Positions 21-50,618 of a DNA stretch of 56,445 bases are shown piece after piece. The stretch covers positions 1 through 56,445 of the forward strand of contig NZ_JAKZMM010000028.1 of assembly GCF_022809355.1 (NCBI RefSeq). The letters run 5' to 3'. The notes under the pieces were generated by a model that made no database searches, was not told the DNA's origin, and saw only the letters and a program-made list of their open reading frames with translations. The translations under genes and the position numbers were made by a program. Positions within the stretch are counted from its first letter, which is position 1. Each line of letters begins with the position of its first letter. This DNA is from Parabacteroides faecalis. GTDB lineage: Bacteria > Bacteroidota > Bacteroidia > Bacteroidales > Tannerellaceae.

Positions 21-134
21 ATATGTAAAGCCTTTTAGTAAGACTTATTTTATCTGTAGAGTTTTTTAGTAACGTATCAAAAAAGTGTAAAGTAAATTTA
101 GGCATAGTCAATCTCAATTATCAATTCTCAAAAA

Positions 135-282
135 GCCGGCGTGTTTTTATCATTTCACGCCGGCTTTTCAGCAAAAGACGCCGGCTTTTTCTCTCTTTAT
201 GCCTACCTTTCTAAATCAAATAAACGAGAACCGATTTCGATCCTCGTTGGATCTGTTTTCGATTCTCGTTTAGTTTGATTGG
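135..282. repeat. Intergenic palindromic repeat arrays (GCCGGC array and 22-bp CGAGAATCG array)
   Basis: Three GCCGGC cores flanked by A or T tracts begin at 135, 159 and 180. The last two are in the same orientation with a 21-bp offset, and the first is inverted, so the first two form a hairpin. A second array lies at 225-270: the 11-mers at 238 (CGATCCTCGTT) and 260 (CGATTCTCGTT) are exactly 22 bp apart, with an inverted copy of the motif at 222-230. No gene lies between 1 and 396. The architecture resembles arrays elsewhere in this window. Function is unknown. Confidence 0.7.
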
Positions 283-308
283 TATTCTTCTATTATATAG
301 CTACTATA

Positions 309-382
309 CCATAGGCGATTTTTCTTTATACCCTTCACACACCTATTCATTTACCTAATTGTCAGTCACTTCCTGTGAAGGG
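309..382 (-). repeat. 74-bp dispersed element, copy A
   Basis: Read on the minus strand, this 74-bp block aligns without gaps to 39701-39774 (plus strand) at 57 of 74 positions counted by eye. The ends and the TGTGTGAAGGGTATAAA core are best conserved. Inside it, CCCTTCACA and TGTGAAGGG form a 9-bp inverted repeat about 34 bp apart. It lies just downstream of the ferredoxin gene and next to a GCCGGC palindrome array, as does the other copy. It may be a small MITE-like or structured-RNA element. No coding potential is seen. Confidence 0.65.
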
Positions 383-396
383 TGTGAAATCTTTCC

Positions 397-1182
397 TTAT
401 AAGAACATTTCTGGGGCTTTGCGGGCACTGAAATTCTTATATAAGTATTCCGCGAAAGGATTCGGGAAAGTTCTAGCCTCTTCCGGACACTCTTTCACAC
501 AGGCACAACACTTAATACAACGTGTCGGATCACTATACATCTCATCATTAACAATTGAAATAGCACTTACTGGACAAACACCTATACAGTGTCCACATAA
601 ATTACAACGAGATGCATCTACCAACGGAGCAGCAGGTGCCGACGGCTTCTTTTCTTTATAAGGTCGGTTGCCTTTTATCTGCAAAGAAGACAGAGATTCC
701 AACGAAGAACAAGCCTCCAACTTTTCCAATGCATGCTGACCGAAGAGGAAGGCTTCGTCATGATCTTTCTGATCCGGGCGACCCGATGCTACCGGATATT
801 GAGATGTACTGAATGAATGTTCACCCACAAAAGCAGCGGCAGCCAACAATGTAAAACCTTGCTGCACCAACAAATCCGACAACTCCAACAACGCATCTTC
901 ATAATCCCTGTTTCCGTAAACAACGACAGGAACAACCGGAGAATCTTTTCCCACAAACTTTTTCAAACGTTCTATTGCTGTATCGGCAACACGCCCGCCA
1001 TACACAGGCACTGCAACAACTGTCAATTCACGTTCTACCACTTCCTCAGAGTCCGGCATTTCATACGTCAAATCTGATTCTGAAAAAGATACCGCTCCCA
1101 TTCCTTCCACAATAGCATGAGCTATTTTAGCGGAAGTATGCGTGGGAGAAAAATAAATGACATGTACATGTTTATAATTCAT
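397..1182 (-). CDS. EFR1-type flavodoxin-like / 2x[4Fe-4S] ferredoxin
   Basis: The 261-residue protein has a flavodoxin-like N-terminal half, with the loop SPTHTS near residues 12-17 where flavodoxins hold the FMN phosphate. Its C-terminal half is a bacterial-type ferredoxin with two CxxCxxCxxxCP motifs (Cys193/196/199/203 and Cys222/225/228/232). It is a cytoplasmic electron carrier of the EFR1 type. It is the last gene of the iorA-iorB-thioredoxin operon and its start overlaps the previous stop by 4 bp. Because the IorA encoded here lacks its own ferredoxin domain, this protein is a plausible electron acceptor for IorAB. That pairing is inferred from position only. Confidence 0.85.
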   Translation of the reverse strand: MNYKHVHVIYFSPTHTSAKIAHAIVEGMGAVSFSESDLTYEMPDSEEVVERELTVVAVPVYGGRVADTAIERLKKFVGKDSPVVPVVVYGNRDYEDALLELSDLLVQQGFTLLAAAAFVGEHSFSTSQYPVASGRPDQKDHDEAFLFGQHALEKLEACSSLESLSSLQIKGNRPYKEKKPSAPAAPLVDASRCNLCGHCIGVCPVSAISIVNDEMYSDPTRCIKCCACVKECPEEARTFPNPFAEYLYKNFSARKAPEMFL

Positions 1183-1706
1183 TTCTTTAACGCTCCTTCT
1201 ATTTGATTCATCAACTCTGCAAATTCTTGATCTGTATATCCTTTGCTGGTATAAATCACTTTTCCGTCTTTTCCGATCAGATAACTGCGCGGAATCAGAT
1301 TTTTGGCAAAAGCATTAAAGATAGCCCGATTCTTATCCGGATACAGCGGGAAAGAAAACCCTTTCTTCTCGTTATATTTCTTCAAGTCGGCATCCGTGTG
1401 TTCCCGCCCGATCACCAGCATCACAAAATCTTTATTGTCTTTATATTTCGGCCAAAGCTGATCCTTTACTGCTGCCAATTCTTTCTGACAAGGCGGACAC
1501 CAGGTAGCAAACAGATTCACCAAAATAACTTTCCCTTTGAAAGAAGAGGAAGCCACTTGTGTCCCGTTGTCATGTACGATTGTGAAAGTAGGCATTGAAT
1601 CACCCACTTTGACAATATCGTTTGAATCATTCTGGGCCCAGGCAACACAGGCCAGCAAAAGAGCCATCGAAATAAATAAGAATTTCTTCATAGATGAACT
1701 ATTCAT
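1179..1706 (-). CDS. TlpA/ResA-like thioredoxin-fold protein, exported
   Basis: The 175-residue protein has an N-terminal signal sequence (hydrophobic stretch about residues 9-23, likely cleavage after AWA) followed by an AhpC/TSA-Redoxin fold with the active site WCPPC at residues 69-73. It also has the conserved cis-Pro region (LIPRSYLI). TlpA-like proteins reduce or isomerise thiols outside the cytoplasm. A second in-frame ATG lies at codon 6 and could be the real start. It sits between iorB (23-bp gap) and the ferredoxin (4-bp overlap), which is odd for an envelope protein in an operon of cytoplasmic redox enzymes. Either a shared thiol role or simple co-transcription is possible. Confidence 0.85.
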   Translation of the reverse strand: MNSSSMKKFLFISMALLLACVAWAQNDSNDIVKVGDSMPTFTIVHDNGTQVASSSFKGKVILVNLFATWCPPCQKELAAVKDQLWPKYKDNKDFVMLVIGREHTDADLKKYNEKKGFSFPLYPDKNRAIFNAFAKNLIPRSYLIGKDGKVIYTSKGYTDQEFAELMNQIEGALKK

Positions 1707-1729
1707 TTTAATACACCTTCTTCCTATCT

Positions 1730-2314
1730 TTACTGATTGTGCTTCTGGGCCAGTTCATATCCAGCCTTCAGCGCTTTCAGGTTCATGGCAACGATTTCTT
1801 CTCCCTTACGGGCAAAGATACTGCGAACCCCTTCTTCAATCTTTTCATATTCGATTCCCAAGAAAGGAGTTGCCGCTCCCAACATCACAATATTGGCAGC
1901 CCGAACTGAACCGGCTTCTTTGGCAATAGCCTCTACATCCAAAACTACTTTATGCGGCAGTTTATCCAATTCGGCATTTACCTTCTCCATTTCCGGATAA
2001 TTCGGAATATTGATAAACGGTTGAGAATTGGTAACCAACCAACCCTCTTTACTCAGATAAGGCAGATAACGCAGACTTTCCATCGGTTCGAGAGAAATAA
2101 TCAGATCGGCATGTCCCAACGGGATTAAATCCGAAGCAATTGGCTGATCAGACAAGCGCAGGTTTGACTGCACGTCACCTCCACGCTGGCTCATTCCGTG
2201 TACTTCCGCCTGCTTCATATACAAACCTTCCTTCAAAGCAGCTTCACCGATAGCGGCGGCAATTGAAAGAATACCTTGTCCGCCTACTCCTGACAATATA
2301 ATATCTGTTTTCAT
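1730..2314 (-). CDS. iorB: Indolepyruvate:ferredoxin oxidoreductase, beta subunit
   Basis: This 194-residue protein is the gamma-domain partner of a 2-oxoacid:ferredoxin oxidoreductase. The GVGGQGIL glycine motif at residues 10-17 and the HGMSQRGGDVQSNLR segment (about residues 39-53) are hallmarks of the POR gamma/IorB family. With IorA it decarboxylates aryl 2-oxoacids (indolepyruvate, phenylpyruvate and similar) to aryl-acetyl-CoA and reduces ferredoxin, or runs in reverse. It is translationally coupled to iorA, with start and stop overlapping by 4 bp. Its length is normal for the family. Confidence 0.92.
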   Translation of the reverse strand: MKTDIILSGVGGQGILSIAAAIGEAALKEGLYMKQAEVHGMSQRGGDVQSNLRLSDQPIASDLIPLGHADLIISLEPMESLRYLPYLSKEGWLVTNSQPFINIPNYPEMEKVNAELDKLPHKVVLDVEAIAKEAGSVRAANIVMLGAATPFLGIEYEKIEEGVRSIFARKGEEIVAMNLKALKAGYELAQKHNQ

Positions 2315-3909
2315 TTCTTATTTGCTTTTTTCTTTCTGGTTAATGTTTGAATACACTCTCGACGCGGAATCAATACGGAAACACCCTTATATTCAATTTC
2401 CTCACGGATAATGGCTTTCATTTCCTCATAATTCTTCTTCAACGGAATCATGACCCGAATATGAGCCGGATCAACACCAATACCTGCACAAATAGATTCC
2501 AAGCGACCTGTTCCGGCAGAGTCTTGTCCACCTGTCATGGCCGTCGTCTCATTGTCGGATATTACAATCGTAATATTCGTATTCTCATTGACACAATCCA
2601 GCAAACCTGTCATACCCGAATGCGTGAAAGTAGAATCACCGATCACGGAAACAGCCGGGAAAACACCCGCATCCGAAGCACCTTTTGCCATGGTGATTGA
2701 AGCACCCATGTCAATACAAGAATCAATTGCCCGGAATGGAGGCAAAGCGCCCAAGGTATAACAACCGATATCACCAAAGACTTTAGCCGTCGGATATTCT
2801 GCCAGTACTTCATTCAAGGCCTGATACATATCCCGGTGGCCACAACCCTGGCAAAGAGCAGGCGGACGTTGTTCTACGACTTCCGGTTTTGCATAATACT
2901 CGGTGATCTCCAAGCCCAAAGCAACACCTACAGCATCCGGAGTCAATTCGCCATCACGCTGCAAGGTTCCATCCAAACGACCATGCACCTTCAAACCTTT
3001 ACTCAGCAAGCCTTTCAACTGCTGTTCTACAACCGGATAACCTTCTTCCAATACCAGAATCTCATCGCAAGCATCAACCAAACGTTCCAGTTTCTCCTGA
3101 GGAACCGGATACTGCGTAATCTTCAATACCGGATGCTTGAATCCATTCGGACAGTTTTCAGAAAGATAGTTATAAGCAATACCTGTTGTAATAATACCTA
3201 AAGACTTATCCGGTCCATCGAAATATACATTATAGGGAGAATTTTCTGATTCCTGCATGAATATTTCCTGAGCCGCAATCAGCTTCTTATACCGCTGACG
3301 AGCCAAAGCCGGCAACAAGATAAAACACTGACGACCGTCTTCTGGACAATGCATTGGCAATTGTTCTTTCATCGGTTGCGTTTCCACACCAGCACGCGAA
3401 TGCGCCATACGTGTTGTTACACGCAACAAAATCGGATATCCTAATTTTTCTGATAGTTCGAAACCATGATAAACCATATCATATGCTTCCTGCTGACTGG
3501 AAGGTTCCAGCATCGGAATCATGGCAAAATTACCATACATACGGTTATCCTGTTCATTCTGTGAAGAGTGCATCGAAGGATCGTCGGCAGTCAGAATAAT
3601 CATACCTCCATTGATTCCACTCATAGCTGCATTCATAAAGCAATCGGCAGCTACATTCAGTCCGACATGCTTCATACAGCACAACGAACGCTTTCCCGCA
3701 TAACTCATACCCAACGCAGCTTCCATGGCTGTCTTTTCGTTAGCACTCCAGTTACAATGAATCTTCCGTTCACGAGCCACCGGAGAATTCTGGATATATT
3801 CAGTTACTTCAGTAGAAGGCGTTCCCGGATAGGCATATACACCCGAAAGACCAGCATCAATAGCCGCCTGGGCAATTGCCTCATCCCCTAAAAAAAGATG
3901 TTTTCCCAT
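2311..3909 (-). CDS. iorA: Indolepyruvate:ferredoxin oxidoreductase, alpha subunit, lacking the ferredoxin domain
   Basis: The 532-residue thiamine-pyrophosphate enzyme has the pyrimidine-binding domain first (YPGTPSTEVTEY near residue 27). The C-terminal TPP domain carries the CQGCGHRD motif and the GDSTF...SDNETTAMTG metal/TPP motif. Classical IorA proteins continue for about 70 more residues with a two-cluster ferredoxin domain. This one stops after a lysine-rich tail with no CxxCxxC motif, so the intramolecular iron-sulfur relay is missing. Electrons must leave through another carrier, perhaps the ferredoxin three genes downstream. It is the first gene of the operon, with a -7 promoter motif about 35 bp upstream. 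Confidence 0.92.
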   Translation of the reverse strand: MGKHLFLGDEAIAQAAIDAGLSGVYAYPGTPSTEVTEYIQNSPVARERKIHCNWSANEKTAMEAALGMSYAGKRSLCCMKHVGLNVAADCFMNAAMSGINGGMIILTADDPSMHSSQNEQDNRMYGNFAMIPMLEPSSQQEAYDMVYHGFELSEKLGYPILLRVTTRMAHSRAGVETQPMKEQLPMHCPEDGRQCFILLPALARQRYKKLIAAQEIFMQESENSPYNVYFDGPDKSLGIITTGIAYNYLSENCPNGFKHPVLKITQYPVPQEKLERLVDACDEILVLEEGYPVVEQQLKGLLSKGLKVHGRLDGTLQRDGELTPDAVGVALGLEITEYYAKPEVVEQRPPALCQGCGHRDMYQALNEVLAEYPTAKVFGDIGCYTLGALPPFRAIDSCIDMGASITMAKGASDAGVFPAVSVIGDSTFTHSGMTGLLDCVNENTNITIVISDNETTAMTGGQDSAGTGRLESICAGIGVDPAHIRVMIPLKKNYEEMKAIIREEIEYKGVSVLIPRRECIQTLTRKKKANKK

Positions 3910-3942
3910 GTTATTATGATATTAATGTCTTGTTTCAAACGT

Positions 3943-3950
3943 CAAAGATA
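3943..3950 (-). promoter_or_regulatory. Promoter (-7 element) of the iorAB operon
   Basis: On the minus strand this reads TATCTTTG, a perfect TAnnTTTG -7 element, 33 bp before the iorA start. The sequence about 19 bp further upstream (CTTT) is only a weak match to the -33 TTTG. Confidence 0.65.
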
Positions 3951-3980
3951 CGTTTTTTGTTATATATTGAAAGCTATTCA

Positions 3981-5021
3981 TCAGAAAATCTTTCTTCTGT
4001 TAAGTTCCGAACGGTATCTCGCAGCATTTCTATTGTGTTCTGCCAAAGTTACCGCAAAATTATGACGACCGGAAAAGTCCTCCTTCGCACACATATATAA
4101 ATAACGGTGTTTCGTATAATTCAAGACCGCATCCAATGCCTGAATCGAAGGAATCCGGATCGGTCCGGGAGGCAGACCTGCATATTTATACGTATTATAT
4201 GGAGAATCGACCTCCAGATGCTTATCTAATATGCGACGGAGAGAAAAATCACCTACGGCAAACTTCACGGTCGGATCAGCCTGCAAAGGAATACCTGCTT
4301 TCAGACGATTCAGATACAATCCGGCAATCACCGGATATTCATCTACAGCAGCCGATTCTTCTTCCACGATTGACGCCAATACCGAAACCTCAACCGGACT
4401 TAATCCGGCAGCCTGAGCTTTCTCTTGTCGGGAAGCATTCCAAAATACTTTATATTCCCGTTTCATCCGGGCCATAAACCGCTCGGGAGACACATTCCAA
4501 TACACTTCATAGGTATTAGGTATAAACATGGCGACTATGGTTTGCCTATTAAATCCCATAGAAGCACACCAGGCAGAATCATTCATCAGACGAAGCAAAG
4601 TATCACCTTTCAACATCAGCTCTTCATCCATTCTTTTTGCCAGTTCTTCCCGCGAACGCACACCTATAAACGTAAGCCGGATGGCTTCCTGATGCCCGCT
4701 TCGCAAACGCCGAACTAAATCCAGATTACTCATCTTCGGATCTACCCGATACCGTCCTGTCTTCAGATGCCCCTCATAATTCATCCAGGAAGCCAACTGA
4801 CGAAAACTTCCAATATGTAAACAAGCAGCCGAATCTTCCAGTTCCTGACATAACTGATCCCAATCTTTTTGTTCGTCAATATAAACATACACAGGTTTTT
4901 CGGAAAAGAAATTAGGAGCCCATACTATCCGATAAATCCAAAGACCACAACAAAATAGAATCAGGAATACCGCAATACTACAGATCCAAATCCAATGATG
5001 AAAGGAAAAGCGTTTATTCAT
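3981..5021 (-). CDS. mltG: Endolytic murein transglycosylase MltG
   Basis: The 346-residue inner-membrane protein has one N-terminal membrane segment (about residues 10-30) and a YceG/MltG domain outside. The catalytic region is clear: LASIVEEES with the general acid/base glutamate, then LQADPTVKFA and the YNTYKYAGLPPGPI segment near residue 280. MltG cleaves nascent glycan strands and is thought to set the end of peptidoglycan synthesis. The LysM-like N-terminal part is divergent, as is usual in Bacteroidetes. It appears monocistronic, 71 bp downstream of which the iorA start lies. Confidence 0.92.
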   Translation of the reverse strand: MNKRFSFHHWIWICSIAVFLILFCCGLWIYRIVWAPNFFSEKPVYVYIDEQKDWDQLCQELEDSAACLHIGSFRQLASWMNYEGHLKTGRYRVDPKMSNLDLVRRLRSGHQEAIRLTFIGVRSREELAKRMDEELMLKGDTLLRLMNDSAWCASMGFNRQTIVAMFIPNTYEVYWNVSPERFMARMKREYKVFWNASRQEKAQAAGLSPVEVSVLASIVEEESAAVDEYPVIAGLYLNRLKAGIPLQADPTVKFAVGDFSLRRILDKHLEVDSPYNTYKYAGLPPGPIRIPSIQALDAVLNYTKHRYLYMCAKEDFSGRHNFAVTLAEHNRNAARYRSELNRRKIF

Positions 5022-5055
5022 ATATATTTAATGAATTGATTTTCAGATTCAGCCA

Positions 5056-5063
5056 CAAAATTA
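5056..5063 (-). promoter_or_regulatory. Probable promoter (-7 element) of mltG
   Basis: The minus strand reads TAATTTTG (TAnnTTTG) 34 bp upstream of the mltG start. No good -33 TTTG is present at the expected distance. Confidence 0.45.
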
Positions 5064-5095
5064 GTATCTTTTTTCCGAAAAAACACGTCAAAAGT

Positions 5096-5254: not shown

Positions 5255-5256
5255 CA

Positions 5257-6672: not shown

Positions 6673-6790
6673 CAGAATGAATGATTTATAAGTTTGTCAT
6701 TATTCCCTGTTTCTAAAAAGAAAGAACAGATATCTATTTATCCGTTTTCTCTCACCTAAAGTTTTTATTCGGCCGAATCATTCTTTAATC

Positions 6791-6874
6791 CACGCCGCGG
6801 ATTACTTAGTTTACGTCGTGGATTAAGTAGTTCACGACGTGGATTACTTAGTTTACGCCGTGAACTAAAGAATT
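6791..6874. repeat. Four-unit tandem array, exact 21-bp period
   Basis: Units begin at 6791, 6812, 6833 and 6854. Each opens with a short quasi-palindrome (CACGCCGCGG, TACGTCGTGG, CACGACGTGG, TACGCCGTGA) and continues with an AT-rich half close to ATTACTTAGTT. No insertions break the 21-bp spacing, so each palindrome lies on the same helix face two turns apart. A weaker unit may precede it at 6770. It lies about 120 bp upstream of the C11 peptidase promoter and 75 bp beyond the toxin-antitoxin terminator. No gene lies between 6563 and 7001. Confidence 0.8.
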
Positions 6875-6950
6875 CATTGTTTATTTCACATAAAAAGGAA
6901 AAAGGATTTTTAATTTTCAGAACAAGAGAACACCTAAAAAATTGAACACA

Positions 6951-7001: not shown

Positions 7002-7307
7002 TTAAAGAGGTCGAAGTTCGACAGTCAAACCCATAGCTGCAGCTATCTTATATAAAGTCGCAACAGAAGGGACTGTTAATCCTCGTTCTATTCTCGAAAT
7101 ATATCCTTTATCAGCACCAATACGCTTTGCTAATTCAGCTTGTGTCAAATGTGCATTCTTCCGAGCCTCCAGAAGTATCTGAGCATTATATTCTTCCCAT
7201 GCTTTTTCCCTATTTTTTTCTCGTTCAGCAGAACCTTCTTTACCCAGACCTTCATCCAGCCAAGTGTCGATATCATACAGATCTTTACCGATTTCCTTTA
7301 GTTCCAT
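7002..7307 (-). CDS. XRE-family antitoxin (HigA-type)
   Basis: This 101-residue protein has an acidic N-terminal segment rich in Glu and Lys, then a Cro/C1 helix-turn-helix (LTQAELAKRIGADKGYISRI, about residues 53-72) and a C-terminal hydrophobic end (MGLTVELRPL). Antitoxins of this kind bind and neutralise the RelE-fold toxin and repress the operon. It overlaps the 3' end of the toxin gene by 23 bp, in toxin-first order, as in higBA. A perfect 8-bp inverted repeat upstream of the toxin is its likely operator. Confidence 0.87.
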   Translation of the reverse strand: MELKEIGKDLYDIDTWLDEGLGKEGSAEREKNREKAWEEYNAQILLEARKNAHLTQAELAKRIGADKGYISRIERGLTVPSVATLYKIAAAMGLTVELRPL

Positions 7308-7617
7308 AATATTCCTCTTTTAATCTTAAAGCCTTTTCTATCTCACGTTCAGGTATTCTTTGTGTCTTTTTTCTAAAAGCATTAAATAAAATAACTACTG
7401 TATTCCCATCATATATGAAAAAGATTCTAAACTCATTGTTCCCATAATTAATCCTGAATTCATATAATCCATCTCTAATGAACTTAATAAAATGCCTCGG
7501 TAACTTATCTTCTACTTTAAACAAGTCCAAAGCTCTTCTTATTTTATTAACTTCATTTGGAGAAAGTGTTTTAATGAAATCAGAGAAGTATTGTTTATAT
7601 GCTATAATCTTTCTCAT
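7285..7617 (-). CDS. RelE/ParE-superfamily toxin (HigB / Gp49-like)
   Basis: I chose the ATG at 7617 (MRKIIAYKQ). The frame stays open to 7644, but that longer start lies inside the operator. The 110-residue protein has the pattern of the phage Gp49-like HigB group: helical N-terminus, then FIRDGLYEFRINYGNNEFRIFFIYDGNTVVILFNAFRKKTQ-type strands with basic residues. Such toxins cleave mRNA on the ribosome. It is co-transcribed with the XRE antitoxin. The -7 motif ends only five bases before the ATG, so the transcript may be nearly leaderless. Confidence 0.87.
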   Translation of the reverse strand: MRKIIAYKQYFSDFIKTLSPNEVNKIRRALDLFKVEDKLPRHFIKFIRDGLYEFRINYGNNEFRIFFIYDGNTVVILFNAFRKKTQRIPEREIEKALRLKEEYYGTKGNR

Positions 7618-7621
7618 AGGA

Positions 7622-7655
7622 CAAAAATAAGAAAAGTTGTACAATTATACAACTT
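7622..7655 (-). promoter_or_regulatory. Promoter and palindromic operator of the HigBA-type operon
   Basis: A perfect inverted repeat, AAGTTGTA (7634-7641) and TACAACTT (7648-7655) with a 6-bp spacer, lies directly upstream of a minus-strand TATTTTTG -7 motif (7629-7622). The palindrome covers the -33 region, where an XRE repressor would block RNA polymerase. Binding by the antitoxin is inferred. Confidence 0.65.
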
Positions 7656-29231: not shown

Positions 29232-29525
29232 GACAAAAGCTGTGTTATTTTTCATTTTATACTTCTATTAGCCAGCAAAAGGACCTTTTTCTAAAAAATC
29301 AAACTCTTGATAGCCAACAAAAGGTGTGTTTTTACAATTACAAGGGTTTTGTCAGGCAACAAAAGGACTGTTTTTATGGTAACAGTGGTTTTGTCGGGTG
29401 GCAAAAAGATTGTTTCTACCGCAACTATGCATTTGTTTGATAACAAAAGGACTGTTTTTATGGTAACGGTGGTTTTGTCTGATAACAAAAGCATAATTTT
29501 TTCGGCAACACGACTTTTGTAACGA
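29232..29525. repeat. Seven-unit degenerate tandem array, exact 42-bp period
   Basis: Units begin at 29232, 29274, 29316, 29358, 29400, 29442 and 29484 with no indels. The best-conserved pair (29358-29383 and 29442-29467) shares 26 identical bases. Each unit is an imperfect inverted repeat of two 21-bp halves (ACAAAAGGACTG ... CAGTGGTTTTGTC). The units contain few stop codons, so frames stay open on both strands and spell 14-residue repeats (KTVLLLSDKTTVTI-like on the minus strand, NKRTVFMVTVVLSG-like on the plus strand). I see no promoter or ribosome site for them. It fills the 564-bp gap 29138-29701. Confidence 0.8.
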
Positions 29526-29701: not shown

Positions 29702-30031
29702 TTATTCATTTTCAGCAGATAGATCCGCATCCATATCCTGCGGATTGCGTCGTGTATCCCACAAGGCCACTACATAGACAGTATCCTCGACTTCGGATAC
29801 CCGATAAATCAGTTTGCAGTGATTATGTACCACCAGACTGCGGTACTCTTTGGATGAACCAGACAAAAAATATTCTACTTTCCCCATATACGGGAATGTA
29901 GCCAATCGAGCGTCATAATCCCAAATATGCGCAAAAAAACGTTTTGCAACCTTCTCTCCAAACCTAACTAATCCATCCAGAAAAGCGGTTTCAATATCAT
30001 GTTGTACTGATTCCTGCCAAATCACTTTCAT
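29702..30031 (-). CDS. RelE/ParE-family toxin
   Basis: The 109-residue protein has the ParE/RelE fold pattern: two N-terminal helices (VQHDIETAFLDGLVRFGEKVAKRFFAHIW), then strands EYRSLVVHNHCKLIYRV and DTVYVVALWDTRRNP with the C-terminal basic residues of the family. It is encoded after its antitoxin, with a 4-bp overlap. ParE members poison gyrase and RelE members cut mRNA; sequence alone does not decide between them. The acidic tail DMDADLSAENE is a small extension. Confidence 0.85.
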   Translation of the reverse strand: MKVIWQESVQHDIETAFLDGLVRFGEKVAKRFFAHIWDYDARLATFPYMGKVEYFLSGSSKEYRSLVVHNHCKLIYRVSEVEDTVYVVALWDTRRNPQDMDADLSAENE

Positions 30032-39654: not shown

Positions 39655-39700
39655 GCGTAGCGTGCTGCGCCTCCAGCAGGCTAAAGGATGTACCTTCACA
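39655..39700. repeat. Tandem hairpins after the metallophosphoesterase operon
   Basis: GAGGCGTAGC and GCTGCGCCTC form a 10-bp stem (one G-T pair) nearly without a loop at about 39653-39674. AGGATGT/ACATCCT follows at about 39685-39703. They lead straight into the 74-bp dispersed element. They could end the upstream transcript. Outside these repeats I see no gene in 39525-39990. Confidence 0.5.
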
Positions 39701-39774
39701 TCCTTCACAGGAAGTTACAGAATATGAGATAAATAGGGGCGTGTGTGAAGGGTATAAAAGAAAATCGGATATGG
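39701..39774 (+). repeat. 74-bp dispersed element, copy B
   Basis: It aligns without gaps to the minus strand of 309-382 at 57 of 74 positions. The segment GTGTGTGAAGGGTATAAA and the last bases ATATGG / CTATGG are nearly identical. Near-inverted CCTTCACA and TGTGAAGGG lie inside it. As at copy A, a CGCCGG palindrome array follows downstream. Confidence 0.65.
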
Positions 39775-39814
39775 GTATATTTTCCAAAATTCATGCCTAT
39801 GTTTTGATCAATAC

Positions 39815-39877
39815 ACGCCGGGAATTTATCCATTTACGCCGGCTTTTGATGCAAACACGCCGGCTTTTGGAGATACT
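39815..39877 (+). repeat. Three-unit tandem array, exact 21-bp period (ACGCCGG)
   Basis: ACGCCGG begins at 39815, 39836 and 39857, each followed by an AT-rich stretch (GCTTTTGATGCAAAC in the middle unit). The same ACGCCGGCTTTT core makes up the array at 135-190, on the far side of the window. Confidence 0.75.
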
Positions 39878-43965: not shown

Positions 43966-44039
43966 TCTTCCTTAGCTCAGTTGGTTAGAGCATCTGACTG
44001 TTAATCAGAGGGTCCTTGGTTCAAGCCCAAGAGGAAGAG
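43966..44039 (+). tRNA. tRNA-Asn (anticodon GUU), copy 1
   Basis: 74 nt. The acceptor stem TCTTCCT pairs with AGGAAGA. The D-arm is GCTC/GAGC. The anticodon arm CTGAC/ATCAG-type stem carries the loop CTGTTAA with anticodon GTT. The T-arm is CTTGG/CCAAG. Discriminator G, no encoded CCA. Confidence 0.97.
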
Positions 44040-44046
44040 CAAACAT

Positions 44047-44120
44047 TCTTCTTTAGCTCAGTTGGTTAGAGCATCTGACTGTTAATCAGAGGGTCCTTGG
44101 TTCAAGTCCAAGAAGAAGAG
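44047..44120 (+). tRNA. tRNA-Asn (anticodon GUU), copy 2
   Basis: It is the same tRNA 7 bp after copy 1, but acceptor pair 6-67 is T-A (TCTTCTT/AAGAAGA) instead of C-G, a compensated double change. One T-loop base also differs (AAGT instead of AAGC). Anticodon GTT is unchanged. Confidence 0.97.
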
Positions 44121-44132
44121 CAAAACATACAT

Positions 44133-44206
44133 TCTTCCTTAGCTCAGTTGGTTAGAGCATCTGACTGTTAATCAGAGGGTCCTTGGTTCAAGCCCAAGAG
44201 GAAGAG
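44133..44206 (+). tRNA. tRNA-Asn (anticodon GUU), copy 3
   Basis: It is identical to copy 1 in the tRNA body, 12 bp after copy 2. It ends the three-tRNA transcription unit, and a terminator follows. Confidence 0.97.
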
Positions 44207-44440: not shown

Positions 44441-46240
44441 TTAATTTCTATTCTGACGTTTACGTTCTGTTTCATCCAAAATAATCTTACGCATACGCAT
44501 ATAATTCGGAGTGATTTCAACGTATTCATCACCTTTAATATATTCCAACGCATCTTCCAGACTGAAAATAGTTGGCGGAGCCAGAGAAACTTTTTCATCA
44601 GACCCAGAAGCACGCATATTCGTCAACTTCTTAGACTTCGTTACGTTAACCACCAAGTCATTATCTTTTGTATGTTCTCCAACTACCTGACCTGCATAAA
44701 CTTCTTCTCCCGGAGCAATGAAGAAACGACCGCGAGACTGCAAGTTATTCAAGGCATAAGCATAAGCCGTTCCGGTTTCCATTGCAATGATAGAACCGTT
44801 GGTACGACGTTCGATATCACCTTTCCAAGGTTGATATTCCAAGAAGCGGTGAGCAATGATTGCCTCACCGGCAGAAGCCGTCAGAGCCGCATTATTCAGA
44901 CCGATGATACCACGAGAAGGAATTGTAAATTCCAAATGCATACGTCCGTTCTTGCTTTCCATCATCGTCATCTCACCTTTACGTTTGGTCACCATATCGA
45001 TGATACGACTTGAACATTCTTCCGGCAAATTAATAGTCAGTTGCTCAACCGGCTCGCATTTTACACCATCAATTTCCTTGATGATAACCTGCGGCTGACC
45101 TACTTGCAATTCGTATCCTTCACGACGCATCGTCTCGATCAAGACAGACAAGTGCAATACACCACGTCCGTAAACCAACCATGAATCCGCTGAATCAGTC
45201 GGTCTTACACGCAAAGCCAAGTTCTTATCCAATTCTTTCTGCAGACGTTCATAAATATGACGAGAAGTCACATATTTACCATCTTTACCGAAGAAAGGCG
45301 AGTTATTGATTGTAAAGAGCATAGACATCGTCGGCTCATCAATGGCAATGGTAGGCAAAGCTTCAGGTTCCAGAGCATCGGCAATTGTCTCACCAATTTC
45401 AAAACCTTCAATACCGATTACGGCACAGATATCACCTGATTTCACAGACTGCACTTTCGTACGGCCCAATCCTTCGAATACATCGATTTCCTTGATCTTT
45501 GACTTTACCTGCGAGCCATCCCGCTTACACAAAACGATATCTTGTCCTTCACGTAATTCTCCGCGATGAACACGTCCCACAGCAATTCGCCCTACGTATT
45601 TAGAATAATCCAATGAAGTAATCAACATTTGTGACGGACCTTCCAATACTTGCGGTTCCGGAATATATTTGATAATGGCATCCAATAACGCCGTTATATC
45701 CGTAGTAGGCTTTTCCCAATCTTCCGACATCCAACCTTGTTTGGCAGAACCATAAATAGTCGGGAAATCCAATTGTTCTTCGGTAGCATCCAAGCTGAAC
45801 ATCAAATCGAATACCATCTCTTGTACTTCCGAAGGACGACAGTTCGGTTTATCTACCTTATTAATGACAACAATAGGCTTCAGACCAATCTGAATGGCTT
45901 TCTGAAGCACGAAACGAGTCTGCGGCATCGGGCCTTCGAAGGCATCCACCAATAACAAACAGCCATCAGCCATATTCAATACACGTTCTACTTCCCCTCC
46001 AAAATCAGCGTGCCCCGGAGTATCGATAATATTAATCTTATATCCTTTGTAATTAATAGACACATTTTTGGCAAGGATTGTAATACCTCTTTCCCTTTCC
46101 AAATCATTGTTGTCAAGGAACTGATCCGGCTCAGCCTGTCCTTCCCGGAAAAGCTTACCAGCCAATAACATCTTATCCACGAGCGTTGTCTTTCCGTGGT
46201 CCACGTGCGCAATAATCGCAATGTTTCTTATCTTTTGCAT
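44441..46240 (-). CDS. typA: Ribosome-associated translational GTPase TypA/BipA
   Basis: The 599-residue protein begins with the translational GTPase G1 motif AHVDHGKTT (near residue 10). [11 protein letters not shown] (G2), [10 protein letters not shown] (G3) and NKVDKP (G4) follow, then the EF-G-like domains and the BipA-specific C-terminal domain ([19 protein letters not shown]). It binds the ribosome and helps 50S assembly and stress adaptation. Length is typical. It is monocistronic, with a promoter motif upstream and a terminator downstream, and divergent from rpsO. Confidence 0.96.
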
Positions 46241-46261
46241 TGAAGACTAATTTATTGGGTG

Positions 46262-46269
46262 CAAAAATA
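46262..46269 (-). promoter_or_regulatory. Promoter (-7 element) of typA
   Basis: The minus strand reads TATTTTTG, 21 bp upstream of the typA start. No convincing -33 box. Confidence 0.5.
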
Positions 46270-46331
46270 CGACATTTCTCAGAATGTAGAAGGAATATTA
46301 TACCCAAAAAATAAAAAAAGAGCAAGAAATC

Positions 46332-46362
46332 ATTGCAGATCAAAAAGAAACACCTATCTTTG
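46332..46362 (+). promoter_or_regulatory. Promoter of rpsO
   Basis: ATTG (46332-46335) and TATCTTTG (46355-46362) are 19 bp apart, giving a leader of about 45 nt before the rpsO ATG. Confidence 0.7.
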
Positions 46363-46413
46363 CATCCGCTTAAATAACATAGTATAGTATTAATTTATTA
46401 AAGTAAGAGAATC

Positions 46414-46683
46414 ATGTATTTAGATTCAGAAAAGAAAAAAGAAATCTTCGAAAAGTACGGTAAATCAGCTACTAACACAGGTTCTGCTGAAAGCCAGATC
46501 GCATTGTTTACTTACCGTATCGCTCACTTGACTGAGCACCTGAAAGAAAATCACAAAGACTTCGCTACTGAACGTGCGTTGAAAATGTTGGTAGGTAAGC
46601 GTCGTCGTCTGTTGGATTATCTGACAAAAGTTGATATCGAAAGATATCGTGCTATCATCAAAGAACTGGGTATCAGAAAGTAA
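46414..46683 (+). CDS. rpsO: 30S ribosomal protein S15
   Basis: The 89-residue protein is a full-length S15, with the conserved TGSAESQIALFTYRIAHLTEHL segment and RRRLLDYLTKVDIERYRAIIKELGIRK end. It binds 16S rRNA and nucleates the central 30S domain. The gene stands alone, with a strong promoter and a bidirectional terminator. In many bacteria S15 represses its own mRNA; the short leader here shows no obvious structure that I can prove. Confidence 0.98.
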   Translation: MYLDSEKKKEIFEKYGKSATNTGSAESQIALFTYRIAHLTEHLKENHKDFATERALKMLVGKRRRLLDYLTKVDIERYRAIIKELGIRK

Positions 46684-46705
46684 TTTTACTTCTCCTATAA
46701 GTTCA

Positions 46706-46740
46706 TAAAAAGGTCACTTCTTTTCGGAGTGACCTTTTTT
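46706..46740. terminator. Bidirectional terminator after rpsO
   Basis: AAAAAGGTCACT and AGTGACCTTTTT form a 12-bp stem around nine bases, with T and A runs outside. It ends rpsO and the convergent YbjQ-like gene. Confidence 0.88.
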
Positions 46741-46762
46741 ATTTCCTTTTGTTTTCCCGTTA

Positions 46763-47083
46763 TTATTCATAACGAACGGCTGTTCCGGCTGCCGTAACCA
46801 TCAGCATACTTCCTTCGCCGCCTACGGTTTCATAATCAAGATCGATGGCAATCACCGCATTGGCACCCAAAGCGGCTGCCTGTTGTGACATCTCCTGCAA
46901 AGCCGTTTCCTTGGCTTCCCGCAATACTTTCTCGTACGAACCCGAACGTCCACCCACAATATCCCGGATGCTGGCAAAGAAATCTCTGAAAATATTCGCA
47001 CCAATGATTGTTTCGCCCGAAACAATTCCATAATAAGCCGTAATCCGCCGGCCTTCAATGTTGTTTGTTGTAGTCAGTAACAT
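46763..47083 (-). CDS. YbjQ/UPF0145 family protein
   Basis: The 106-residue protein matches the YbjQ (heavy-metal-binding-domain-like) family over its full length: [48 protein letters not shown] in fragments near the N-terminus, then [17 protein letters not shown]. Structures of the family form pentamers; the function is unknown. It is a single gene, convergent with rpsO. Confidence 0.9.
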
Positions 47084-47105
47084 AATTGTATTTCTATTTT
47101 TATCC

Positions 47106-47135
47106 AGGCATCAAAGGTCTGAACCTCTGATGCCT
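47106..47135 (-). terminator. Terminator of the GH92 gene
   Basis: AGGCATCA and TGATGCCT pair around 14 bases (inner GAGGTTC/GACCTTT partly pairing). It lies 26 bp beyond the GH92 stop. Confidence 0.6.
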
Positions 47136-47160
47136 TGCTTATTGATTGTTTTTTATTGAA

Positions 47161-49419
47161 TTACGGATGAACTGCCGTCATCTCGATTTCCAAGGTTCCG
47201 CCTTTCACCAGGTCGGCATGCGGGAAGAACAAGGAATCCAGGACTTTTCCGTTCAACTTAGCCTCTTTCATATACTTATTTTCCGGAGAATTGTTCTTGA
47301 CAATAATCTCGAAATTTCCTCCGGCAACCGGGATTGTCGCCTTATCTATCATCGGACGACCGATTGCATACACCGGAATTCCCGGACAAACCTGATAAAA
47401 GCCTAATGCACTCAATACATACCAGGCAGACATCTGACCACAGTCTTCGTTTCCGATGATTCCGTCCGGCTGGTTCGTATAGAAATTACGCATGATAAAG
47501 TCCAAACGTTCCGCTCCCTTCCAAGGCGCATCCGTCCAATTGTACAAATAGGCCATGTGGTGACTGGGTTCGTTTCCATGTGCATACTGACCGATCAGCC
47601 CCGTAATATCACCCGAAGCCTCAGCTCCGTCGATTTGAGAAGAAGTCGTAAACAAAGTATCCAACCGTGTTTCCAATTCTTTCTTACCACCAATCTCGGC
47701 AATGAAATTATCCATATCATGCGGAACAAAGAAACTCCATTGGAACGCATTTCCTTCGGTATAATCACTCTTCATATGAGATGAATAACGCGGATTAAAC
47801 GGTGTACGGAAAGAACCGTCGGCCATCACACCGCGCATCAGCTTCGTTTCCGGATCCAGATAACGCTTATAATAGGAAGCTTTCTCCTGATAAGCTTTGG
47901 CCAACGTATCATTTCCGGCTTTAGCCGCTATCTGAGCGATACACCAATCGTAATAAGCCATTTCCAATCCCCACGAAACGGATTCCGGAATCGAGTCGGC
48001 AGGGACAAATCCAAACTTATCTTTATAATACACATGCCGGGTGATCAGATCCAGTTCGCGTGTACCTTTGAACTTTTCTGCCAGGTCTGCCCGATAAACA
48101 GAAGAACGGGCTCCGGCTTCAGCCCAAAGATTCAAATCTCCTTTTGCCAAATCCTTGGCTACCAGATCAGCCAATACGGATACCGCCGGATAACCAACCA
48201 TACATCCGGTATAACTGGAAGCCAACGGCCATTTCGGCAAGATGGTTCCTTCCATATAACCCTGCACCAACGCATTTCCCATATCCGAAGCCAACGACGG
48301 ATTGATAATCGTCATCAACGGATGCAAGGCACGGAACGTATCCCACAAAGAGAACGCCGTATAATTCGTATAACCGGCAGCAGCAGTATGTACTTTCTTG
48401 TCCATACCCAAATAACGGCCATCCACATCCTGATAAGCAAACGGAGCAATCATCGTATGGTAAAGCGCTGTATAGAAGTTCTTCCGGATCACCGGATCGT
48501 TGGTTTCGATCTGGATCTTGTTCAATGCCTTGTTCCAGATATCAGCCGATTCGGCACGAACCTGATCGAAGTCCCATCCCGGCAATTCGGCTTCCATATT
48601 CTTTTCCGCTCCTTCCACATCAACCGGAGAAAGTGCTACTTTTACCAACAAAGGCTTATCCGATTCCTTGAACCGATAGTGGAACTTCAGATCTTTATCG
48701 GAATGCAATTTGAGGAACAAGGAATCCGAACGCATCTTTCCATCTATATACTGATAGATCTTAGTCATCGGTTCAGAGAAAGTCACCCGGTAAGAAACAG
48801 AATGGAAATGTGCCCAACCCTGTGTCTTATACGTTCCTTCTACCGTTGAGTCGTTGACCAGCTGATAATCATTGCTCACCAATTTGTGTCCCCAGTTGGG
48901 TTGAAGTACATGCCCCAAGTCCAGCATCACCCGACGGTCTTTCGGATTATCGAAAGTATACCGGTGAAAGCCCACTCGGTCGGTAGAAGTCAGCTCGACA
49001 TTCACACCCAAGTTTTCCAACCGTACGGCATAATAGCCCGGAGTTGCCTTCTCTGTCTCCTTCTTGAAGGTAGCCACCGGCTTGATCGAATCGCCTCCAC
49101 TGAACGGGAGCAGCATGATATCGCCCAGATCTCCGATACCTGTTCCCGACAAATGCGTATGACTGAAGCCATAAATCTGATGATCGTCATAATGATAGCC
49201 GCTGCTGGCGTCCCAGCCCATGATATGTGTATCCGGACTTAACTGCACCATCGCGTACGGACGCGTAGCTCCCGGGAATGTATGCCCATGAAAGCCGGTT
49301 CCGATAAACGGATCTACATACTGGATTTCGTCGGCCAACGGCTGCGACTCCGGTTTCTGCTGACAACTCGTTGCCAAACCCATCACGGCAACGGATAATA
49401 AAAATAGTTTCGTCTTCAC
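47161..49419 (-). CDS. GH92 exo-alpha-mannosidase, lipoprotein
   Basis: The 752-residue protein has a lipoprotein signal (VMGLATSCQQK). It then has the GH92 beta-sandwich and (alpha/alpha)6 domains: VDPFIGTGFHGHTFPGATRPYAMVQLSPD at the start, EGNAFQWSFFVPHD with the catalytic acid, and GNEDCGQMSAWYVLSALGFYQVCPG near the end. GH92 enzymes are calcium-dependent inverting alpha-mannosidases that trim N-glycans or fungal mannan. It stands alone, without SusCD partners, so it is probably a periplasmic or surface trimming enzyme. Linkage specificity cannot be read. Confidence 0.93.
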   Translation of the reverse strand: MKTKLFLLSVAVMGLATSCQQKPESQPLADEIQYVDPFIGTGFHGHTFPGATRPYAMVQLSPDTHIMGWDASSGYHYDDHQIYGFSHTHLSGTGIGDLGDIMLLPFSGGDSIKPVATFKKETEKATPGYYAVRLENLGVNVELTSTDRVGFHRYTFDNPKDRRVMLDLGHVLQPNWGHKLVSNDYQLVNDSTVEGTYKTQGWAHFHSVSYRVTFSEPMTKIYQYIDGKMRSDSLFLKLHSDKDLKFHYRFKESDKPLLVKVALSPVDVEGAEKNMEAELPGWDFDQVRAESADIWNKALNKIQIETNDPVIRKNFYTALYHTMIAPFAYQDVDGRYLGMDKKVHTAAAGYTNYTAFSLWDTFRALHPLMTIINPSLASDMGNALVQGYMEGTILPKWPLASSYTGCMVGYPAVSVLADLVAKDLAKGDLNLWAEAGARSSVYRADLAEKFKGTRELDLITRHVYYKDKFGFVPADSIPESVSWGLEMAYYDWCIAQIAAKAGNDTLAKAYQEKASYYKRYLDPETKLMRGVMADGSFRTPFNPRYSSHMKSDYTEGNAFQWSFFVPHDMDNFIAEIGGKKELETRLDTLFTTSSQIDGAEASGDITGLIGQYAHGNEPSHHMAYLYNWTDAPWKGAERLDFIMRNFYTNQPDGIIGNEDCGQMSAWYVLSALGFYQVCPGIPVYAIGRPMIDKATIPVAGGNFEIIVKNNSPENKYMKEAKLNGKVLDSLFFPHADLVKGGTLEIEMTAVHP

Positions 49420-49547
49420 TGTGTTATAGATTTAGTATTAGTTATTGTCAAATCTTATTCAGCAAACTTACATATTTTTATTGACTTACTCAGTATTCCG
49501 GAGTCAAAAAAGAGAAATGTAAAGCAAAGATCAGATGAATTATTTCC

Positions 49548-49555
49548 TACCTTTG
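49548..49555 (+). promoter_or_regulatory. Promoter (-7 element) of the split lysO operon
   Basis: TACCTTTG lies 23 bp before the first start codon. No clear -33 TTTG is seen. Confidence 0.5.
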
Positions 49556-49578
49556 CAGCTCATTTATACAAATCAGCT

Positions 49579-49860
49579 ATGTTTACTGTCATTGGCATCA
49601 TGTTTGCCGGTATTGCTGCCGGATACTTATTAAGAAGTGTTTCTATCTTGCAAAAGATAGGGAAACCTATTTCGTACACCATATTCGCCCTGCTCTTTTT
49701 ATTGGGCGCTTCCGTCGGGACAAACCCGCAAATCATCAATAACTTGAGTACATTGGGCCTGCAAGCCTTGCTGATTGCAGTTGCCACGACTCTAGGCAGC
49801 GTTTGCATGGCGAAGATCGTCTATCACTTTTTCTTTGAGAAGAAAGGAGGAGAGAAATGA
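49579..49860 (+). CDS. LysO-type exporter, N-terminal subunit
   Basis: The 93-residue protein has about three membrane segments and matches the N-terminal third of the lysine exporter LysO (YbjE/DUF340): MFAGIAAGYLLR, FALLFLLGASVGTNPQII. In E. coli LysO is a single chain of about 300 residues. Here the two parts are separate genes with a 4-bp overlap (ATGA), so they are translationally coupled and probably assemble. It exports lysine, or thialysine as a toxic analogue, across the inner membrane. Confidence 0.85.
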   Translation: MFTVIGIMFAGIAAGYLLRSVSILQKIGKPISYTIFALLFLLGASVGTNPQIINNLSTLGLQALLIAVATTLGSVCMAKIVYHFFFEKKGGEK

Positions 49861-50483
49861 TTGGCAGTATCATTGTTGTAGGATTCTTCATCTTGGGTTG
49901 CCTGCTGGGCTGGGCCGGTCTTTTACCCGACTGGATCATGGATGCCGACCTTTCGATGTACGTATTATATGCCCTGATGTTTCAAGTCGGACTCAGTATC
50001 GGCAGCGATAAGAAACTGAAAGACATCCTTCGAAGCATCCGTCCGAAATTATTGCTCGTGCCTTTGGCTACAATCAGCGGCTCTTTACTATTTGCCGCCC
50101 TGATCAGTCTGGTAATCAGCCGTTGGAGTGTATTCGACTGCCTGGCGTTAGGTAGCGGATTCGCTTATTATTCTCTCTCTTCCATCCTGATTACTCAGCT
50201 GAAAGAACCATCTTTAGGTATTCAGATCGCTTCCGAATTAGGAACCATTGCACTGATCGCCAATATTCTCCGGGAGATTTTCGCCCTGTTGGGTGCACCC
50301 ATCTTCCTCAAATACTTCGGGCGTCTGGCACCAATCTGTGCCGGAGGAGCCACAACCATGGATACAACGCTGCCCATTATCACCCGCTACTGTGGCAACG
50401 ACCTGGTGTTTGTTTCCATCTTCCACGGGATTCTGGTCGATTTCAGCGTACCTTTTCTGGTATCCTTCTTCTGCCAGTTATAA
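49857..50483 (+). CDS. LysO-type exporter, C-terminal subunit
   Basis: The 208-residue membrane protein carries the rest of LysO: MFQVGLSIGSDKK, the charged-residue helices GFAYYSLSSILITQ and ELGTIALIANILREIFAL, and the loop APICAGGATTMDTTLPII. About six membrane segments. All signature motifs of the family are present between the two genes, so the split looks functional rather than a frameshift. A 22-bp array follows 47 bp after the stop. Confidence 0.88.
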   Translation: MIGSIIVVGFFILGCLLGWAGLLPDWIMDADLSMYVLYALMFQVGLSIGSDKKLKDILRSIRPKLLLVPLATISGSLLFAALISLVISRWSVFDCLALGSGFAYYSLSSILITQLKEPSLGIQIASELGTIALIANILREIFALLGAPIFLKYFGRLAPICAGGATTMDTTLPIITRYCGNDLVFVSIFHGILVDFSVPFLVSFFCQL

Positions 50484-50530
50484 CGAAGTCATCAAGATTT
50501 CCAGTCAAACCTTTTTATTTTATATCGTTT

Positions 50531-50618
50531 CACCCGGGTGATTCGATCGTCCCACCTAGGTGAAACGATCATTCCACAAGGGTGAAACGATCGTTCCACA
50601 GTCGTGGAACGGTAAAAA
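50531..50618. repeat. Four-unit tandem array, exact 22-bp period
   Basis: Units start at 50531, 50553, 50575 and 50597. Each begins with a 10-bp palindrome with a variable centre (CACCCGGGTG, CACCTAGGTG, CACAAGGGTG, CACAGTCGTG) and the first three continue with a GAAACGATCGTTC-like half. A partial earlier unit (ATCGTTT) ends at 50530. It lies between convergent genes. 22 bp is two helical turns. Confidence 0.8.

What the first reader, a model, noticed from the sequence alone, without database searches (positions are those of the whole stretch)
120..50618. A class of intergenic arrays with the same architecture but different sequences
At five places the intergenic DNA contains 3-7 tandem units with exact 21-, 22- or 42-bp periods (one or two units at the first site). 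Most units hold an 8-10 bp palindrome with a variable centre plus an AT-rich half. Sequences differ between loci (ACGCCGGC, YACGNCGTGG, ACAAAAGGACTG, CACCNNGGTG), but spacing of two helical turns is kept without indels. They lie upstream, downstream and between genes, so a single operator role does not fit. Possible roles: binding sites for a nucleoid-associated or recombination protein, cruciform or insulator elements, or products of a local repeat-generating process. Shared origin is inference; periods are directly seen.
Basis: partly seen in the sequence, partly recalled or inferred. Interest (0 to 1): 0.75.

Follow-up and report, generated by a model that had tools for sequence, protein, structure and literature searches.

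The report
Histone-like regulators with private repeat arrays
The odd 21- and 22-base repeat arrays scattered between genes look like docking strips for a family of histone-like proteins in gut Bacteroidales, each protein seeming to have its own private set of strips, including one in front of its own gene.

Summary
The arrays are real, and larger than seen. The 21-bp array (6780-6873) is one of 25 places of a dispersed ~94-bp element (A); the 22-bp array (50524-50611) is one of 22 of a second (B); sites 1 and 5 belong to a third (C); the 42-bp array is unique in the genome. Key result: the seven HU-HIG genes with a winged-HTH-like tail found in this genome each have a 21/22-bp array just upstream, each of a different family (A, B, E-I). 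Sixteen of 18 arrays found blind in 400 kb have one of those promoter arrays as clear best match. Replication: 19 of 19 fetched HU-wHTH genes of Parabacteroides, Phocaeicola and Bacteroides have such an array upstream, 18 of 19 at the stricter cut-off, against 5.2% of 830 control genes. Period follows protein subgroup (7/7 at 21; 23/25 at 22). I infer that paralogous, autoregulated, sequence-specific HU-like proteins tile these arrays. Binding, regulatory outcome and spread of copies are not shown. Family C and the 42-bp array have no known partner.

The parts
6780..6873 (+). Family A core: 94 bp, four 21-bp units with ACGNCG centres, ends ATTCTTTA..TAAAGAAT; dispersed, 23 copies of 3-5 units plus 2 partial in the genome
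   Evidence: matches the array upstream of HU-wHTH gene L363 (G000:C1:28361-28897) with z 40
6714..6779 (.). Left shoulder of family A: sequence not conserved between copies, A/T triplets in 22-bp phase
   Evidence: 46 flanks of 23 copies
6874..6939 (.). Right shoulder of family A, same 22-bp A/T phase
50524..50611 (+). Family B array: four CAC-N4-GTG dyads at 22 bp; one of 22 places in the genome
   Evidence: matches arrays upstream of HU-wHTH genes L341 (own), L339, L340, L376, z 19-27
126..189 (.). Family C units (GCCGGCGT / ACGCCGGC), spacing 24 and 22; dispersed family, no partner protein found
1..110 (+). End of an IS3-like insertion sequence beside the family C array; the centre of the first C unit lies 31-32 bp from this end at 9 of 16 genomic places (31 here) and 42 bp at one more
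218..275 (.). Family D units (..AACGAGAATCG..), two 22-bp units; also beside other C arrays
39802..39863 (+). Family C array, three 21-bp units
29268..29500 (+). 42-bp array of alternately inverted 21-bp half-units; single copy in the genome; unassigned

Best explanation
Arrays of families A, B, E, F, G, H and I are operator strips for paralogous HU-HIG proteins that carry a C-terminal winged-HTH-like region (HU-wHTH). Each paralog has its own family: one array in front of its own gene (autoregulation, inferred) and, for all but family I in what I sampled, further copies dispersed between other genes. SHOWN here: arrays exist; most arrays have the promoter array of one HU-wHTH gene as clear best match; the gene-array association repeats in other Bacteroidales; the period (21 or 22) follows protein subgroup; most promoter arrays have about 4-5 units; the A/T phase runs about 66 bp past the family A core; one repeat inserts at 22-bp-quantised distances from family B. 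INFERRED: HU-wHTH dimers bind one per 21/22-bp unit on one face of the helix, the wHTH reading the half-site and the HU part bending the AT-rich junction; neighbours bind cooperatively and spread into the shoulders; the complex represses or shapes nearby transcription and local DNA architecture. UNKNOWN: the regulatory outcome, and how copies spread.
For: (1) Gene-array pairing: 14 HU ORFs of >=175 aa in four Parabacteroides genomes; 13 have a 21/22-bp array scoring >=0.55 and 11 >=0.60 within 300 bp upstream (12 once the start of L362 is corrected); 830 control genes: 9.3% and 5.2%; control periods 19/20 reach 0.60 in 0.7%; binomial 2e-12 for 11 of 14. The exception, L352, ends in a Gly-rich tail. 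(2) Replication not selected by arrays: 19 of 19 fetched loci >=0.55, 18 of 19 >=0.60. (3) Specificity: 16 of 18 blind arrays have one of the seven own-genome promoter arrays as best match, z 10-98 against mononucleotide shuffles; two of the 16 are themselves promoter arrays, so 14 of 16 others. (4) Period by subgroup: 7/7 group 2 at 21; 23/25 group 1 at 22; p 1e-5. (5) HU-HIG in all seven own proteins; the group 1 profile hits HU/IHF over residues 29-119 and, weakly, wHTH regulators over 131-189. (6) Shoulders: A/T at +20 and +21 in 46 of 46 flanks, at +42 in 44 of 44. (7) 14 of 15 RB junctions at 14-16 or 36-37 bp from the first CAC.
Against: Autoregulation is inferred from position. The wHTH is not strictly required for an array: of 16 shorter HU ORFs in the four genomes, 6 reach 0.55 and 4 reach 0.60, above the control rate, though one of these is a truncated gene and one is low-complexity; of eight own-genome HU ORFs without wHTH two reach 0.55. 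In one search one array (L112) fits E (18.3) but also A (11.1), and two more have second-best z of about 7. Family I was not found elsewhere in the sample. Two group 1 proteins (L386, L394) have 21-bp arrays. Family A's cognate belongs to subgroup 2, whose profile found no PDB match. The window's family A copy is 80-95% identical to those at 24 other places, more than operator selection alone would predict, so a copying process is also needed. Orthologous thyA and glnN upstream regions carry 21/22-bp arrays in only 3 and 4 of 29 relatives, so sites turn over.
Confidence: 0.82

Rival explanations
1. They are non-autonomous mobile elements (MITEs with a trapped minisatellite, like BrickBuilt of P. 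gingivalis) without a host function; the HU-wHTH link would be a preferred landing place.
For: Families A, B and C are dispersed and mostly intergenic; some B arrays lie between inverted copies of the RB repeat; BrickBuilt is a 23-nt tandem array inside a MITE, 19 copies, always intergenic (PMC4596501, abstract, one section and passages).
Against: No target-site duplication seen by eye at family A ends. One array family per HU-wHTH paralog in seven of seven own genes and the same gene-array link in other genera is not expected of free insertion. The RB repeat lies at variable, quantised distances, so it is not a fixed part of the element.
Confidence: 0.08
2. RNA-level elements: hairpins, terminators or REP-type structures acting in transcripts.
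For: Units are imperfect palindromes; one strand of family A could pair with G-U wobbles (read); B-type arrays of STD2_99 favour convergent gene pairs (11 of 20).
Against: Within family B the arms of inner units are less complementary inside an array than between arrays (z -3.9), and so are the long-hairpin pairs (z -2.9) (outer units z +1.5). Rfam at gathering cut-offs finds only tRNAs in the window. Family A lies upstream of a gene at 22 of 23 sites.
Confidence: 0.03
3. The arrays are ordinary operators: each HU-wHTH is a conventional repressor with a modest regulon, with no filament or nucleoid role.
For: 22 of 23 family A sites lie upstream of a gene; 27 of 33 start-facing genes begin 100-190 bp away; an array lies in each own paralog's promoter.
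Against: A/T phase extends about 66 bp beyond the core on both sides without sequence conservation; neighbouring genes look diverse (judged by eye, not annotated); B-type arrays often lie between convergent genes. None of this excludes it: it differs from the best explanation mainly in the filament step, so the two odds overlap.
Confidence: 0.4
4. Local slippage produces minisatellites that mean nothing.
For: Tandem repeats can arise by slippage; the 42-bp array is unique.
Against: About four units, two exact periods, dispersed families, pairing with paralogs, at most 2 arrays of this strength at any other period in 155 regions.
Confidence: 0.02

Closest known systems
HU-HIG proteins (Pfam PF18291; NCBIfam TIGR01201 HU_rel)
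   Same: The partner proteins belong here: all seven own-genome proteins pass the Pfam cut-off, and the one relative scanned passes the NCBIfam cut-off.
   Different: The library lines seen give domain architecture only; no DNA target or array is mentioned. The defining paper (Burroughs et al. 2017, recalled) is not held.
BrickBuilt and 464/PgRS elements of Porphyromonas gingivalis (PMC4596501; abstract, Background section and passages seen)
   Same: Intergenic dispersed tandem arrays in a Bacteroidales species: 23- and 41-nt units, 19 BrickBuilt copies; other 22-nt repeats noted there without locations.
   Different: Described as MITEs with leader, tail and TIRs like those of an IS5-family element, 1-23 units; here mostly 4-5 units, no TSD seen, and a partner gene. 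Whether P. gingivalis arrays pair with an HU-wHTH gene was not tested.
BldC-type cooperative binding to direct repeats (PMC5859096; passages seen)
   Same: Works like: a small wHTH protein covering a variable number of repeats, distorting DNA.
   Different: BldC is MerR-like, head-to-tail, without an HU domain; its repeats are shorter. Not the same family.
REP / BIME palindromes as IS targets (PMC1525189; passages seen)
   Same: Dispersed intergenic palindromes that specific ISs, including IS3-family ones, use as targets.
   Different: No Y1 transposase (RAYT domain) in this genome; units are 21/22-bp arrays tied to HU-wHTH genes.

Membership tests
HU-HIG (PF18291), for the partner proteins | Profile match above the curated cut-off | tested here: met
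   7 of 7 own-genome HU-wHTH proteins, 56-134 bits against cut-off 26.2; 3 of 3 from three genera
HU-HIG (PF18291), for the partner proteins | C-terminal winged HTH fused to HU | tested here: inconclusive
   Group 1 profile hits wHTH regulators over 131-189 only weakly (E 0.0027-0.003); group 2 no PDB hit; no structure available
REP / BIME with RAYT | REP-associated Y1 transposase in the genome | tested here: not met
   PF01797: 0 matches in G000; 5 of 14 control genomes positive
MITE | Target-site duplication at element ends | tested here: inconclusive
   None seen by eye beside the family A ends; no formal test; not looked at for B and C
MITE | Terminal inverted repeats shared with an IS | not tested
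   Family A core ends are inverted (ATTCTTTA/TAAAGAAT) but were not compared with an IS library
Intrinsic terminators / known structured RNAs | Rfam match or conserved pairing | tested here: not met
   Only tRNAs in the window at gathering cut-offs; family B inner arms anti-correlate; the terminator scan was not run
Operator arrays of an autoregulated DNA-binding protein | Array in the protein's own promoter region | tested here: met
   7 of 7 in G000 (scores 0.55-1.00); 19 of 19 fetched replication loci
Operator arrays of an autoregulated DNA-binding protein | Physical binding and regulation | not testable with these tools
   Needs EMSA, DAP-seq or ChIP-seq and mutants

The most novel reading that the evidence does not exclude
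Bacteroidales carry a chromosome-wide addressing system: a set of paralogous sequence-specific histones (HU fused to a wHTH), each with its own private, rapidly diverging family of 4-5-unit 21/22-bp strips, tiling DNA as short filaments that spread into structurally matched shoulders and mark intergenic regions as regulatory nodes and insertion-sequence landing sites. Pairs of protein and strip family co-diversify from species to species.
Probability: 0.4. Interest if true: 0.92.

Novelty: new variant of a known kind. Interest (0 to 1): 0.82.

Why it matters
HU-HIG proteins are named in Pfam by architecture, and I found no DNA target for them in print (searches, in the open-access library only, listings seen). 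If right, each HU-wHTH gene now comes with a predicted target: read the array in its promoter, then find the rest of its sites by sequence. That would make several uncharacterised regulators per gut Bacteroidales genome (seven in this one) directly testable, explain a class of dispersed intergenic repeats, and offer a natural set of protein-DNA pairs for studying how specificity and helical spacing co-evolve. It also shows insertion sequences landing at quantised distances from such arrays.

Tried and rejected
Hairpin or cruciform function: disfavoured for family B. An earlier version that fixed the orientation agreed for unit 2, but orientation choice can bias it, so I rely.

REP/RAYT mobilisation: no Y1 transposase. 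General 22-bp A/T periodicity of all intergenic DNA: not supported once array-bearing regions are removed (G000 lags 42 and 44 z 3.2, lag 22 z -2.3; my detrending distorts these lags). Dyad-centre autocorrelation was too noisy to use.

Positional conservation: mixed. ThyA: 3 of 29 relatives with 21/22-bp arrays >=0.58 (G015 and G016 with the same one) and one 24-bp low-complexity case; GlnN: 4 of 29 (three GlnN loci had under 300 bp of upstream sequence); near the base rate, so not claimed. One search scored the wrong side for minus-strand loci and is superseded. Two P. distasonis B arrays share neighbours with STD2_99 arrays.

Exact family A 24-mer in 84,980 species: 0 hits, own genome possibly left out. 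Family A in 40 relatives: 1 weak hit. HU-wHTH in viral contigs: none confirmed. Phage-collection hits (4 records, 24-30% identity) were not followed. Partner for family C, D or the 42-bp array: none found. One search crashed half-way; one search replaces it, except that the tail of L352 is taken. The family B pattern scan gave 54 stretches from 13 assemblies, 53 of them from 12 Bacteroidales assemblies, one from a Mycobacterium with too few units.

In one search I entered the periods of the first 26 proteins by hand; for L362 one search had printed period 22 (0.55) from a wrongly called start, and I entered 21 by eye, with the start corrected, gives 21 (0.79).
Full report
WHAT WAS SEEN. The window is contig C28 of a 4.31-Mb, 104-contig genome. 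Site 1 is the least regular (24 then 22 bp).

DISPERSED FAMILIES. The 21-bp array belongs to a family of 23 copies of 3-5 units plus two partial ones; the others are 80-95% identical to it over a sharply bounded core of usually 94 bp (20 of 23). The 22-bp array belongs to a second family, 22 places; all 21 copies analysed fit four CAC-N4-GTG dyads at 22 bp. Matches with E of 0.4 or more were dropped from both counts. Sites 1 and 5 belong to family C, whose units flip orientation in register. The 42-bp array has no second copy. Family A is nearly private to the species: 1 weak match in 40 relatives. Family B has diverged cousins in 6 of 37 congeners. A degenerate B pattern (20 fixed bases) scanned over 257 Gb gave 54 stretches, 53 of them from 12 Bacteroidales assemblies: Parabacteroides, Tannerellaceae, Tannerella, Prevotella, Bacteroides, Azobacteroides and others, usually with four or five dyads, more in the Prevotella (by eye).

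IT IS A CLASS. In 400 kb of the own genome, 18 arrays with period 21 or 22 turned up in 155 intergenic regions, none in shuffles. They fall into many sequence families with one architecture. Four congeners sampled have others; two outgroup families showed none, in 62 and 52 kb.

WHAT IT IS PROBABLY NOT. In family B the two arms of inner dyads are less complementary within an array than between arrays (z -3.9), the long-hairpin pairs too (z -2.9), and the four-base centres avoid repeating each other (z -3.9); outer units do not show this (z +1.5). Selection for hairpins predicts the reverse. There is no Y1 transposase. No target duplication is visible by eye at family A ends.

STRUCTURE BEYOND THE CORE. 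In 46 flanks of 23 family A copies, sequence is not conserved, yet positions +20 and +21 are A/T in 46 of 46 and +42 in 44 of 44; +64 to +66 remain rich in A/T. Both sides show it, facing gene starts or gene ends. With 65.7% A/T in intergenic DNA, 46 of 46 has a chance of 4e-9 per position.

THE PARTNER PROTEINS. Clustering the ORFs beside the 54 arrays, a DNA-binding family stood out in three genera, immediately downstream of the array (65, 109 and 145 bp): an HU-HIG protein with a C-terminal wHTH-like region; response-regulator-like and other clusters also recurred. A profile search of four Parabacteroides genomes followed. In the own genome all seven HU-wHTH genes have an array upstream, and each array is of a different family: L363-A, L341-B, L343-E, L359-F, L355-G, L351-H, L347-I. 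L341's is weak (0.55) but is itself a family B match. Over the four genomes, 13 of 14 HU ORFs of at least 175 aa reach 0.55 and 11 reach 0.60 (12 with one start corrected), against 9.3% and 5.2% of 830 control genes. The 14th has a Gly-rich tail instead of a wHTH. Of the 16 shorter HU ORFs, 6 reach 0.55 and 4 reach 0.60: L345, truncated by a stop (0.66), L346 (0.64), L348 (0.77) and the low-complexity L368 (0.60). Of eight own-genome HU ORFs without wHTH, L373 reaches 0.60 inside coding sequence and L375 0.55 with D-like units. So the wHTH form is strongly, not exclusively, linked to arrays.

ONE-TO-ONE MATCH. Aligning the 18 blind arrays to the seven promoter regions, 16 have one family as clear best match, z 10 to 98 (two of the 16 are promoter arrays themselves); L112 fits E (18.3) and, less well, A (11.1); the other two arrays are C and D and match none. 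No blind array fell to family I. The window's 21-bp array matches L363's promoter (z 40) and its 22-bp array matches L339, L340, L376 and L341 (z 19-27); the two C sites, site D and the 42-bp array match none clearly (z up to 4.2, 1.0 and 5.5; a control stretch 2.8).

INDEPENDENT TEST. tblastn with two of these proteins against the plasmid collection, with no regard to arrays, found HU-wHTH genes in Parabacteroides distasonis, Phocaeicola massiliensis, Bacteroides finegoldii and Bacteroides sp. CACC 737. All 13 loci of the first set with at least 80% coverage score >=0.55, 12 of them >=0.60; in two of the 13 another period also reached 0.60. Six of 6 fetched from the second score >=0.69. Some are orthologs of loci already seen (L376/L340, L393/L344, L390/L362), so 19 is not 19 independent events. 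Array sequences otherwise differ from gene to gene.

PERIOD FOLLOWS PROTEIN. Subgroup 2 (starting MAEYIKQEM or similar) has 21-bp arrays in 7 of 7; subgroup 1 has 22-bp arrays in 23 of 25, the exceptions being L386 and L394 (p 1e-5). The two exact periods thus have a likely cause in the protein.

INSERTION SEQUENCES. A repeat (RB) occurs at 13 places in the genome, all beside family B arrays; its end lies 14-16 bp (7 junctions) or 36-37 bp (7 junctions) from the first CAC, with one at 24. The two classes differ by 22 bp. The end of an IS3-like element (integrase end at L110, recognised by eye) occurs at 16 places; 10 have a C unit within 120 bp, its centre 31-32 bp away in 9 and 42 in one; 6 have none on that side. 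IS targeting of REPs, also by IS3 members, is known (PMC1525189, passages).

MECHANISM. HU dimers bend DNA through the minor groove and wHTH domains read sequence (established knowledge of these folds). A dimer per 21/22-bp unit would sit on one face of the helix; the AT-rich junction suits the HU part and the half-site the wHTH. Four or five adjacent dimers would nucleate a short filament that spreads into A/T-phased shoulders. The array in the paralog's own promoter suggests feedback control. The placement of other copies differs by family: A upstream of a gene at 22 of 23 sites; own B copies 4 convergent, 4 tandem, 4 divergent, 2 in ORFs, 7 at contig edges; STD2_99 B-type arrays 11 convergent, 8 tandem, 1 divergent (A against STD2_99-B, divergent versus convergent, p 1e-4). 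Apart from these counts, this paragraph is inference.

LIMITS. No experiment; simple ORF calling in scripts; scores rest on a fixed window; controls are genes in general, not other HTH regulators. How near-identical copies spread is unsolved.

Noticed in passing
window 1-117; L110:1-411: The window begins inside an IS3-like insertion sequence end; 15 of 16 copies of this end lie at or within 200 bp of contig ends, so the IS itself is probably collapsed in the assembly.
   Followed up: partly
L254-L268 (RB repeat): A near-identical repeat of unknown type was found only beside family B arrays (13 of 13 places), at 22-bp-quantised distances, sometimes on both sides.
   Followed up: partly
window 43966-44206: Three tandem, nearly identical tRNA genes (anticodon loop CTGTTAA, probably tRNA-Asn by eye).
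   Followed up: no
window 7002-7644 and 29702-30031: An HTH_3 gene with a small ORF behind it (perhaps a toxin-antitoxin pair) next to the family A array, and a ParE-type toxin gene near the 42-bp array.
   Followed up: no
window 325-388 and 39687-39766: Similar inverted repeats (CTTCACA..TGTGAAGGG) occur near both family C sites.
   Followed up: no
L095 (G024): The lone distant relative of family A has four units inside long outer inverted repeats, unlike the own-genome copies.
   Followed up: no
L376 (P. distasonis record NZ_OY725757): An HU-wHTH gene with its array lies directly before rpsL.
   Followed up: no
L345 (G012): An HU gene interrupted by a stop codon still has a 22-bp array upstream.
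   Followed up: no
family B half-sites: GTTTCAC/GTTCCAC resembles the ParB parS half-site (recalled), but with a four-base centre.
   Followed up: no
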